Made by a program: the position numbers and the translations under genes
The notes under the pieces: model-generated
Database searches by the model: none
The model's input: only the letters and a program-made list of their open reading frames with translations
What the model was told of the DNA's origin: nothing
NCBI RefSeq assembly: GCF_021917145.1
Contig: NC_061078.1
Location: 1,096,795-1,160,794, forward strand
Length of the DNA stretch: 64,000 nt
Source of the DNA: Hypomesus transpacificus
Lineage: Eukaryota; Chordata; Actinopteri; Osmeriformes; Osmeridae
Direction of reading: 5' to 3'
Part shown: piece by piece, positions 30,216-33,200 of the stretch
How the letters are laid out: each line of letters opens with the position of its first letter
Numbering within the stretch: position 1 is the first letter of the stretch

Positions 30216-33200
30216 CTACCAGACCTGGGGCACGTCGTACAGAGGAGCAGCTTCAGGACCTGGAGAACCATCCAGAACACTCAGCACTACCAAACACCTG
30301 GAGAACCATCCAGAACACTCAGCACTACCAAACACCTGGAGAACCATCCAGAACACTCAGCACTACCAAACACCTGGAGAACCATCCAGAACACTCAGCA
30401 CTACCAAACACCTGGAGAACCATCCAGAACACTCAGCACTACCAAACACCTGGAGAACCATCCAGAACACTCAGCACTACCAAACACCTGGAGAACCATC
30501 CAGAACACTCAGCACTACCAAACACCTGGAGAACCATCCAGAACACTCAGCACTACCAAACACCTGGAGAACCATCCAAAACACTCAGCACTACCAAACA
30601 CCTGGAGAACCATCCAGAACACTCAGCACTACCAAACACCTGGAGAACCATCCAGAACACTCAGCACTACCAAACACCTGGAGAACCATCCAGAACACTC
30701 AGCACTACCAAACACCTGGAGAACCATCCAGAACACTCAGCACTACCAAACACCTGGAGAACCATCCAGAACACTCAGCACTACCAAACACCTGGAGAAC
30801 CATCCAGAACACTCAGCACTACCAAACACCTGGAGAACCATCCAGAACACTCAGCACTACCAAACACCTGGAGAACCATCCAGAACACTCAGCACTACCA
30901 AACACCTGGAGAACCATCCAGAACACTCAGCACTACCAAACACCTGGAGAACCATCCAGAACACTCAGCACTACCAAACACCTGGAGAACCATCCAGAAC
31001 ACTCAGCACTACCAAACACCTGGAGAACCATCCAGAACACTCAGCACTACCAAACACCTGGAGAACCATCCAGAACACTCAGCACTACCAAACACCTGGA
31101 GAACCATCCAGAACACTCAGCACTACCAAACACCTGGAGAACCATCCAGAACACTCAGCACTACCAAACACCTGGAGAACCATCCAGAACACTCAGCACT
31201 ACCAAACACCTGGAGAACCATCCAGAACACTCAGCACTACCAAACACCTGGAGAACCATCCAGAACACTCAGCACTACCAAACACCTGGAGAACCATCCA
31301 GAACACTCAGCACTACCAAACACCTGGAGAACCATCCAGAACACTCAGCACTACCAAACACCTGGAGAACCATCCAGAACACTCAGCACTACCAAACACC
31401 TGGAGAACCATCCAGAACACTCAGCACTACCAAACACCTGGAGAACCATCCAGAACACTCAGCACTACCAAACACCTGGAGAACCATCCAGAACACTCAG
31501 CACTACCAAACACCTGGAGAACCATCCAGAACACTCAGCACTACCAAACACCTGGAGAACCATCCAGAACACTCAGCACTACCAAACACCTGGAGAACCA
31601 TCCAGAACACTCAGCACTACCAAACACCTGGAGAACCATCCAGAACACTCAGCACTACCAAACACCTGGAGAACCATCCAGAACACTCAGCACTACCAAA
31701 CACCTGGAGAACCATCCAGAACACTCAGCACTACCAAACACCTGGAGAACCATCCAGAACACTCAGCACTACCAAACACCTGGAGAACCATCCAGAACAC
31801 TCAGCACTACCAAACACCTGGAGAACCATCCAGAACACTCAGCACTACCAAACACCTGGAGAACCATCCAGAACACTCAGCACTACCAAACACCTGGAGA
31901 ACCATCCAGAACACTCAGCACTACCAAACACCTGGAGAACCATCCAGAACACTCAGCACTACCAAACACCTGGAGAACCATCCAGAACACTCAGCACTAC
32001 CAAACACCTGGAGAACCATCCAGAACACTCAGCACTACCAAACACCTGGAGAACCATCCAAAACACTCAGCACTACCAAACACCTGGAGAACCATCCAGA
32101 ACACTCAGCACTACCAAACACCTGGAGAACCATCCAGAACACTCAGCACTACCAAACACCTGGTAACTGAGAACACAGCAGAACAGCTGCATGCATGCTG
32201 GGCTGTAACTGGAGACTCAGTAAGGTACTCCTCCACACAGCCTTGACTAGACCGGAACATTCTTCCGTTACCCACTTAGTAAATGTCTTCTGGTTCATAG
32301 AACTGTAGAATGTGAACACACCTGTTTCTACTTCCGTCTTTTTCTGGTTCTTGCGACCCTTCCTTTTCTGATTGGCAGGTTGCTGATTGGCAGGGGGTTG
32401 CTGTTGCCAGGCGACCGCCCCCGTCTCACTGATGGGCTGAGAGGCCTCAGGACTCTCCTCTTCCTGAGTTGGACTTGTCCCCGACAAATCAGACGGCGAC
32501 CTGCAGACAGGAGCACCCAATCACAGGCCTGGGACAGGAGCACCCAATCACAGGCCTGGGACAGAGTCGTGTGTAACTTACGTGGTATTAAGCCAGCCTT
32601 CTGTCGTCTTGCTGTCCACCACGCCTGCGTACGTATGAACACACACTTCAAAACTCAAATATGGGCACTGTGTGTGAGTACCGTCAGTCCTGATCTTCTT
32701 GGTGCCCTGTGAGGAGGAGTGTGTGTGTGTGTGTGTGTGTGTGAGTGAGTGAGTACCGTCAGTCCTGATCTTCTTGGTGCCCTGTGAGGAGGAGTGTGTG
32801 TGTGTGAGTGAGTGAGTACCGTCAGTCCTGATCTTCTTGCTGCCTTGTGAGGAGGGCAGGCTCCAGTCGTGTGTGTCGTCCTCCTGGACTGGACTGATGC
32901 TGCGCTTCCCTGGGGTCCTGCCGAACACACACACGTTAAGAGATAGTACACACAGTACAGGTAGGGGTGTGTGGGCGTGAGCTCGTGGCCCTCACCTGTG
33001 CTGTGTGTATCCATAGGAGGGTGCAGTGGAGGGTCGGACCCAGGCGTCTGCACCCCAGGAGGAGCCCCCTCCCTGGGCCTGCCTCTCCTGCTGCCGCCCC
33101 TGGACGTACTCTGCATACGTCTGGATACGGTAGCTCTCGGCATAGCGGCTGGTGTTCATGGCTGGAGGAGCACAGAGGAGGGGGGGGGCCACAGAGAAAG

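What the first reader, a model, noticed from the sequence alone, without database searches (positions are those of the whole stretch)
30216..32500. About fifty copies of the terminal parn 3' splice site in one intron
The last parn intron is a near-perfect 38-bp array whose every unit ends, on the transcript strand, in TGGTTCTCCAG/GTG. The true terminal exon begins after the same TGGTTCTCCAG. The array therefore seems to have grown out of the intron-exon border, and it offers about 50 decoy acceptors that also look like donors (CAG/GTG). The units have no strong polypyrimidine tract, so how the right site is chosen, or whether the end of PARN is variable, is an open question. The very low divergence points to recent expansion or ongoing homogenisation.
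Basis: partly seen in the sequence, partly recalled or inferred. Interest (0 to 1): 0.8.

Follow-up and report, generated by a model that had tools for sequence, protein, structure and literature searches.

The report
Fifty-copy splice-acceptor repeat in fish PARN
The last intron of what appears to be a fish PARN gene is almost entirely a run of 50 near-identical 38-letter copies of its own splice-acceptor sequence, an extreme form of a known kind of repeat at exon borders and a ready-made test of how cells pick one splice site among many alike.

Summary
Window 30260-32159 (minus-strand gene) is exactly 50 copies of a 38-nt unit; only units 3 and 42 differ, by the same single change. A 25-exon PARN model reads open for 659 codons (PDB PARN, E 2e-268). 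Intron 24 (2062 nt) ends with unit 50, so the authentic acceptor is the last copy.

Each unit carries a mid-strength acceptor (rank 15 of 25 in this gene), a branch-point-like CTGAG and a usable-looking donor; only the true junction (CAG|GTCCTG) does not resemble a donor. But PARN's end is not open-endedly variable: all 50 decoys give one tail...TEVETGVW. Nor are acceptors preferred seeds by the copy test: 2 of 24 introns duplicate theirs, about 6.5 expected.

Best reading: a recently expanded minisatellite in a repeat-dense locus, akin to amphioxus "mirages" and to dual-specific splice-site arrays (UBC), mostly tolerated because the true site alone has downstream exon context and is a dead end for re-splicing. 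No RNA data were available, so which site is used is inferred. New variant of a known kind.

The parts
30216..30259 (-). PARN terminal coding exon (exon 25), [14 protein letters not shown] then stop
   Evidence: in frame with the 659-codon model; AATAAA 571 nt after the stop
30260..32159 (-). array of exactly 50 head-to-tail 38-nt units, each ending in CCAG and followed by GTG (units 1-49) or by the exon (unit 50)
30260..30297 (-). unit 50: authentic terminal 3' splice site, with CTGAG at -25 to -21
30564..30601 (-). unit 42, variant (C>T at unit position 23)
32046..32083 (-). unit 3, the same C>T variant
32160..32163 (-). CCAG just upstream of unit 1: decoy acceptor 0; with the next GT it makes CCAGGT, the hexamer that also spans the true acceptor junction
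30260..32321 (-). PARN intron 24, 2062 nt, native donor CAG|GTGTGT
32322..32500 (-). PARN exon 24, ends KKTEVETG in phase 1, with the basic [10 protein letters not shown] stretch
30216..37660 (-). PARN gene model, 25 exons (codons upstream of 37660 not modelled)

Best explanation
This is a recently expanded minisatellite lodged between PARN exon 24 and the terminal exon, in a locus unusually rich in tandem repeats. Its repeat unit is a complete 3' splice site (CTGAG branch-point-like motif, pyrimidine stretch, CAG) fused to a usable-looking 5' splice site (CAG|GTGTTT), so the intron holds 50 dual acceptor/donor decoys plus the true acceptor. The likeliest seed is two CCAGGT hexamers 38 nt apart, one of them the real junction, amplified by slippage or unequal exchange (inferred). 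The 38 nt upstream of the true site are unit 50, the same letters as in 47 of the other 49 units, so nothing within 38 nt upstream can single it out from those. What differs is downstream: real exon sequence leading to a poly(A) signal, a junction that is not a donor, and a missing downstream repeat partner for RNA pairing. I infer that the terminal exon is chosen mainly by its exon context, and that entries into decoys are partly undone because each regenerates the junction ACAG|GTGTTT, which could splice again, while ACAG|GTCCTG could not. Leakage would give one fixed alternative tail (GVW), not a spread of tails. Shown: the array, the gene, the splice-site scores, the reading frames. Inferred: which sites are used, re-splicing, tolerance, origin.
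For: 50 units in one register with one variant type. PARN open for 659 codons with a conventional terminal exon and AATAAA downstream. Unit acceptor 8.17 (rank 15 of 25) and unit donor 5.43 (above 5 of 24 native donors), true site as donor -0.04. 51 junctions give two C-termini only, 50 to 1. The window is 25.8% tandem repeat against 4.6% in twenty 10-kb samples of the same genome. [quoted passage not shown] see also PMC3087553 passages).
Against: No RNA evidence at all. Against 50 equal decoys the true site would need about a 50-fold advantage to reach half of transcripts (arithmetic). Decoys lie nearer the donor and are transcribed first. The regenerated donor (5.43) is clearly weaker than the native one (9.51), which lowers the odds of efficient re-splicing. 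Human UBC, with tandem dual sites, splices to mixed isoforms (PMC10809524 Results), so tolerance without leakage is not guaranteed. The RNA-structure difference at the true site is small.
Confidence: 0.55

Rival explanations
1. Leaky choice: decoys are used often, so a sizeable share of PARN ends in the short tail TEVETGVW with array sequence as 3' UTR. The share could change with copy number, making the array a dial on the PARN C-terminus.
For: All 50 decoys read the same stop after GVW, inside what would be the last exon, so exon-junction-dependent decay need not act (inferred). 47 of the 49 decoy units have the same letters as the true site upstream, and all decoys lie nearer the donor. Human UBC splices stochastically through such sites.
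Against: Amphioxus mirages are reported to leave splicing regular. No isoform data. Predicted pairing hides decoy CAGs.
Confidence: 0.22
2. Structural masking: neighbouring units pair in the RNA, hide every internal CAG, and leave the last one freer because it lacks a downstream partner, so the array hides its own decoys.
For: Decoy CAGs are predicted unpaired 0.00-0.02; the true CAG exceeds all five decoys tested in 9 of 10 window sizes. CAG in the array is more hidden than in 299 of 300 controls with the middle of the unit shuffled. Three units fold better than 200 of 200 of their own shuffles (z -3.1).
Against: True CAG is still only 0.00-0.11 unpaired, with no difference in the -80/+60 window. 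Against arrays of shuffled units the energy is unexceptional (z -1.4, 33 of 400 as low), and the opposite strand, which should not matter, deviates more (z -2.1). A single unit folds no better than its shuffles (z 0.19). The CAG control was chosen after seeing the fold. Helicases and cotranscriptional folding are ignored.
Confidence: 0.1
3. Purely inert: the decoys are never seen by the spliceosome and the array is noise from a repeat-rich locus, with the matching splice signals coincidental.
For: Window far richer in tandem repeats than genome samples; other PARN introns carry arrays, intron 20 with 17 decoys scoring at least as well as its true site, though shuffles of that pyrimidine-rich intron give 11.5.
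Against: Dual AG|GT units of this strength are rare: 2 of 85 distinct arrays of period 20-100 examined. The unit is the authentic acceptor itself, so the decoys cannot be intrinsically worse upstream.
Confidence: 0.1
4. Assembly artefact: copy number or purity of the array is wrong.
For: Long pure arrays are error-prone. An amphioxus mirage appeared misassembled in its draft genome (PMC3087553 passage).
Against: No N in the window; the 20 contigs sampled are 5-23 Mb long, which suggests long reads; 1.9 kb fits in one such read. Reads were not available.
Confidence: 0.05

Closest known systems
[quoted passage not shown]
   Same: Tandem repeats that include a splice site, at an exon border, with AG/GT signals in many repeats; the 3' end of the intron is involved as in BflGb6 (PMC3087553 passages; PMC3902484 passage)
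   Different: Here a jawed vertebrate, probably a fish, with 50 copies (BflGb6 has 6 and 3 in two haplotypes), a single variant type over 1900 bp, and a unit that carries the intronic half only: just GT of the exon is shared
Dual-specific splice sites in tandem repeats, human UBC
   Same: Every unit boundary is AG|GT, in principle usable as donor and as acceptor (PMC10809524: abstract, Results and Discussion seen)
   Different: UBC units are coding, at 228-nt intervals and in frame; here units are 38 nt, out of frame, intronic, and the final acceptor is not donor-like
Interferon-induced gene 6-16 (IFI6) minisatellite with multiple splice donor sites (Turri et al. 1995)
   Same: Minisatellite whose units offer repeated splice sites (title seen in a reference list; anything more is recalled; paper not held)
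   Different: Donors there; acceptors, with weaker donors, here
TERT intron 6 VNTR6-1
   Same: 38-bp unit, 24-66.5 copies, intronic, influences splicing (PMC11830802 abstract and passages)
   Different: About 3.5 kb from the exon and proposed to act by G-quadruplexes, not by copying a splice site
Recursive splicing at ratchet points
   Same: Juxtaposed acceptor and donor that can regenerate a 5' splice site (PMC8605326 abstract and passages)
   Different: Sites within long introns there; here 50 in 2 kb, with no test of stepwise splicing

Membership tests
Mirage (minisatellite at an exon-intron boundary) | tandem repeat units include a splice site and abut or span an exon-intron boundary | tested here: met
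   unit 50 ends at the authentic acceptor; TRF array reaches 2 nt into the exon
Mirage (minisatellite at an exon-intron boundary) | units contain exon sequence as well as intron sequence | tested here: not met
   only GT shared with exon 25; no significant similarity of unit to exon (114 of 500 shuffles as good). This is why it is called a variant, not a member
Mirage (minisatellite at an exon-intron boundary) | copy-number instability between haplotypes | not testable with these tools
   exon 24 and unit found at one place only in the held assembly
Mirage (minisatellite at an exon-intron boundary) | regular splicing retained | not testable with these tools
   no RNA data
Dual-specific splice-site array | AG|GT in each unit with acceptor and donor likeness | tested here: met
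   acceptor 8.17, donor 5.43 with approximate recalled matrices
Dual-specific splice-site array | use as both donor and acceptor in RNA | not testable with these tools
   no RNA data
Recursive splicing ratchet point | regenerated donor stronger than the donor of the cryptic exon that follows (generally so, PMC8605326 passage) | tested here: not met
   the regenerated donor and the next unit's donor are the same sequence (5.43 each), so they tie; 'works like' stays possible
Recursive splicing ratchet point | stepwise removal with regenerated junctions seen in RNA | not testable with these tools
   no RNA data
PARN | catalytic and RNA-binding regions colinear with known PARN | tested here: met
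   phmmer to 3d45 (query 1-502), 2a1r, 1whv, 3ctr, 1ug8, all named PARN or poly(A)-specific ribonuclease; CAF1 matches in 4 of 10 stretches given, 2 above the Pfam cut-off

The most novel reading that the evidence does not exclude
The array is a self-correcting splicing ratchet: exon 24 may join any of 50 decoys, each join rebuilds ACAG|GTGTTT, a donor close to the native ACAG|GTGTGT, and splicing repeats until it reaches the one junction that is not a donor, the terminal exon. Entries too close to the end to be re-spliced leak into a single fixed alternative C-terminus, so copy number tunes intron removal and the ratio of two PARN tails.
Probability: 0.12. Interest if true: 0.85.

Novelty: new variant of a known kind. 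Interest (0 to 1): 0.52.

Why it matters
How a spliceosome picks one 3' splice site among equals is usually studied with engineered duplications of a few sites (recalled). Here one intron supplies 51 sites in register, nearly all identical for 38 nt upstream, in a gene whose matches were all at one place in the genome, so position, downstream exon context and re-splicing can be told apart by cDNA sequencing. It would also extend boundary minisatellites, which the papers seen here describe from amphioxus, to a jawed vertebrate at much higher copy number, and it bears on models of intron gain by AGGT duplication.

Tried and rejected
Origin of the unit from the terminal exon: the match CCAGGT..TGGTAG (giving GVW against QVW) looked suggestive, but 114 of 500 shuffles of the exon do as well; the exon with downstream sequence, 300 nt in all (447 of 500), and the upstream flank (134 of 500) are no better. 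Rejected as unproven.

Acceptors as preferred seeds of arrays: acceptor 18-mers are duplicated in 2 of 24 introns (16 and 24) and donors in 2 (10 and 22), against about 6.5 expected from internal 18-mers (P of 2 or fewer 0.0007). The TRF-edge test leans the other way for acceptors (4 of 8, expected 1.9, P 0.043) and not for donors (3 of 8, P 0.20). I do not claim a seeding rule.

Exceptional RNA folding: kept only as a rival, for the reasons given there. As single-stranded DNA, three units of either strand fold somewhat better than shuffles (9 and 3 of 200 as low); I draw nothing from it. In some searches my 'branch-point A' column read the base one position 5' of the A (-23); one search uses the A itself (-22).

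Unit search in viral contigs: none. The genome tool states that G000 has no relatives held, so no ortholog or pre-expansion state could be compared. Splice matrices are approximate recalled human frequencies, not MaxEnt.

Print searches: (open-licence PMC only; 3 to 20 rows shown where anything was found; one search found none). The rows shown named no PARN array of this kind; that is not proof of absence from print.

Full report
What is there. On the minus strand, window 30260-32159 is exactly fifty 38-nt units, GTGTTTGGTAGTGCTGAGTGTTCTGGATGGTTCTCCAG; 48 are identical and units 3 and 42 share one C>T. TRF extends the array by partial matches to 30258-32163: CCAG on the upstream side and GT on the exon side, so CCAGGT lies across both edges of the 50 units. 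There is no N in the window. In the held genome (437 Mb, 376 contigs) the unit was found only here (49 overlapping 71-nt matches), exon 24 with its intron start at one place, and PARN protein matches only within this gene (18 of 18 rows). The genome has MHC class I (13 matches over the cut-off), so it is a jawed vertebrate; that it is a fish is inferred from the genome size.

The gene. Joining exons by GT-AG and frame gives 25 exons from 37660 to 30216 and 659 open codons. The protein matches solved PARN structures (best 3d45, E 2e-268, query residues 1-502; five distinct sequences in all); 4 of 10 stretches given to Pfam match CAF1, two above its cut-off. Codons upstream of 37660 were not modelled. 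The terminal exon encodes [14 protein letters not shown] and stop; AATAAA lies 571 nt after the stop. From memory, human PARN ends in a similar LFEVPDTW, which supports this exon but was not tested by a call. Published work finds a nucleolar signal of human PARN at residues 598-624 (PMC6721724 passages); by position the basic [10 protein letters not shown] in exon 24 is the likely counterpart (inferred), so the short tail would keep it and lose only the last residues.

Splice signals. With approximate recalled human matrices, the unit acceptor scores 8.17, rank 15 of the 25 acceptors of this gene, with 11 of 17 pyrimidines. The unit donor CAG|GTGTTT scores 5.43, above 5 of 24 native donors and below the native exon 24 donor (9.51); the true junction as a donor scores -0.04. 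A CTGAG lies 25-21 nt before the true CAG; the full yTnAy form is absent from this acceptor, as from 9 others of the 24 examined. Intron 24 has 49 decoys at least as good as the true site against 5.8 in shuffles; intron 20 has 17 against 11.5; of the other 22 introns five have one or two and 17 none. Acceptors in the two variant units score slightly higher, 8.74, and the pre-array CCAG lower, 7.15.

Reading frame. Joining exon 24 to each of the 51 CAG sites in register gives ...TEVETGVW for 50 and ...[19 protein letters not shown] for one. Intron retention and two further upstream acceptors also end in the array at GVW, with longer unrelated stretches before it.

Selecting the site. The 38 nt upstream of the true site equal those of 47 of the other 49 units, so information for choosing it must lie downstream, in position, or in folding. 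Downstream, only the true site has the real exon and a non-donor junction. A wrong join rebuilds ACAG|GTGTTTGG, close to the native ACAG|GTGTGTTC, and could splice again; the right join could not. Duan et al. [quoted passage not shown] Against equal decoys, the true site needs about a 50-fold preference to supply half of the messages (arithmetic).

Folding. Decoy CAGs are predicted almost fully paired, the true CAG slightly less so: higher than all five decoys tested in 9 of 10 window sizes, equal in one. Among the gene's 23 other acceptors the median is 0.14-0.32, depending on window, so the true site too is on the hidden side. CAG hiding exceeds 299 of 300 controls, but total energy is ordinary for shuffled-unit arrays (z -1.4) and the opposite strand deviates more (z -2.1).

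Setting. The window is 25.8% tandem repeat and 49.3% G+C; twenty 10-kb samples, one each from contigs C1-C20 at 3.0 Mb, give 4.6% and 43.2% (7,890 N among 200,000 bases). Eight of 24 PARN introns carry TRF arrays of period 10 or more. Of 85 distinct arrays of period 20-100 (47 in the window, 38 in the samples), two, both in the window, have a dual AG|GT unit with acceptor at least 6 and donor at least 4. Acceptors are not favoured seeds by the copy test. So the array is the extreme of a local tendency to repeats, with an unusual unit.

Age. One variant type over 1900 bp means recent expansion or steady homogenisation; edge units are as pure as inner ones, unlike the amphioxus BflGb6 case, where boundary units escape homogenisation (PMC3087553 passage). 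The same variant in units 3 and 42, 39 units apart, suggests copying of blocks (inferred).

What is known. Tandem repeats over exon-intron borders were named mirages in amphioxus and are reported not to disturb regular splicing. Tandem dual-specific sites are known from UBC. Tandem repeats at exon-intron boundaries can alter splicing in young human paralogs (PMC2812944 passages). Intron gain by tandem duplication is a known model (search listing; PMC3087553 passage). The PARN array differs by copy number, purity, an intron-only unit and a final acceptor that is not donor-like. I file it as a new variant of a known kind, not a new class.

Verdict. Observation confirmed; interpretation partly supported; function unproven without RNA.

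Noticed in passing
32670-32855: The end of PARN exon 22 with its donor is present three times in tandem (63-75 bp units), so intron 22 begins with two copies of an exon end and donor; a copied acceptor-like CTCCTCCTCACAG at 32707 scores above the true exon 23 acceptor.
   Followed up: partly
34386-34498: PARN intron 16 is largely a two-copy tandem duplication that includes a copy of its own acceptor (GACCAGTCCTATCCCCCTAG), a small version of the intron 24 case.
   Followed up: partly
33162-33803: PARN intron 20 is nearly all a pyrimidine-rich array with 17 decoys scoring at least as well as the true acceptor (11.5 in shuffles); about the last 50 nt before the acceptor are free of AG.
   Followed up: partly
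35527-35783: PARN intron 10 is array almost from end to end, with repeated TTTGACCTGTCCACAG-like acceptor sites.
   Followed up: no
41966-42209 and 52204-52720: Two arrays share a 19-bp unit (GCAGGGACATGGAGGAGGA). The first lies near an immunoglobulin-domain exon on the minus strand, the second near a stretch with only a sub-cut-off ICAM-type match; possibly a duplicated gene that carried its minisatellite along.
   Followed up: no
4955-8251: Plus-strand open frame of 1098 codons with endonuclease and reverse transcriptase domains, a non-LTR-type retrotransposon protein.
   Followed up: no
63441-63552: Small 36-bp array (3.1 copies) whose unit has a stronger dual AG|GT site (acceptor 8.4, donor 9.5) on the minus strand.
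   Followed up: no
L018 5724-6611 and 8561-9287: Two other arrays elsewhere in the genome, with different consensus units, also have a 38-bp period (22 and 19 copies).
   Followed up: no
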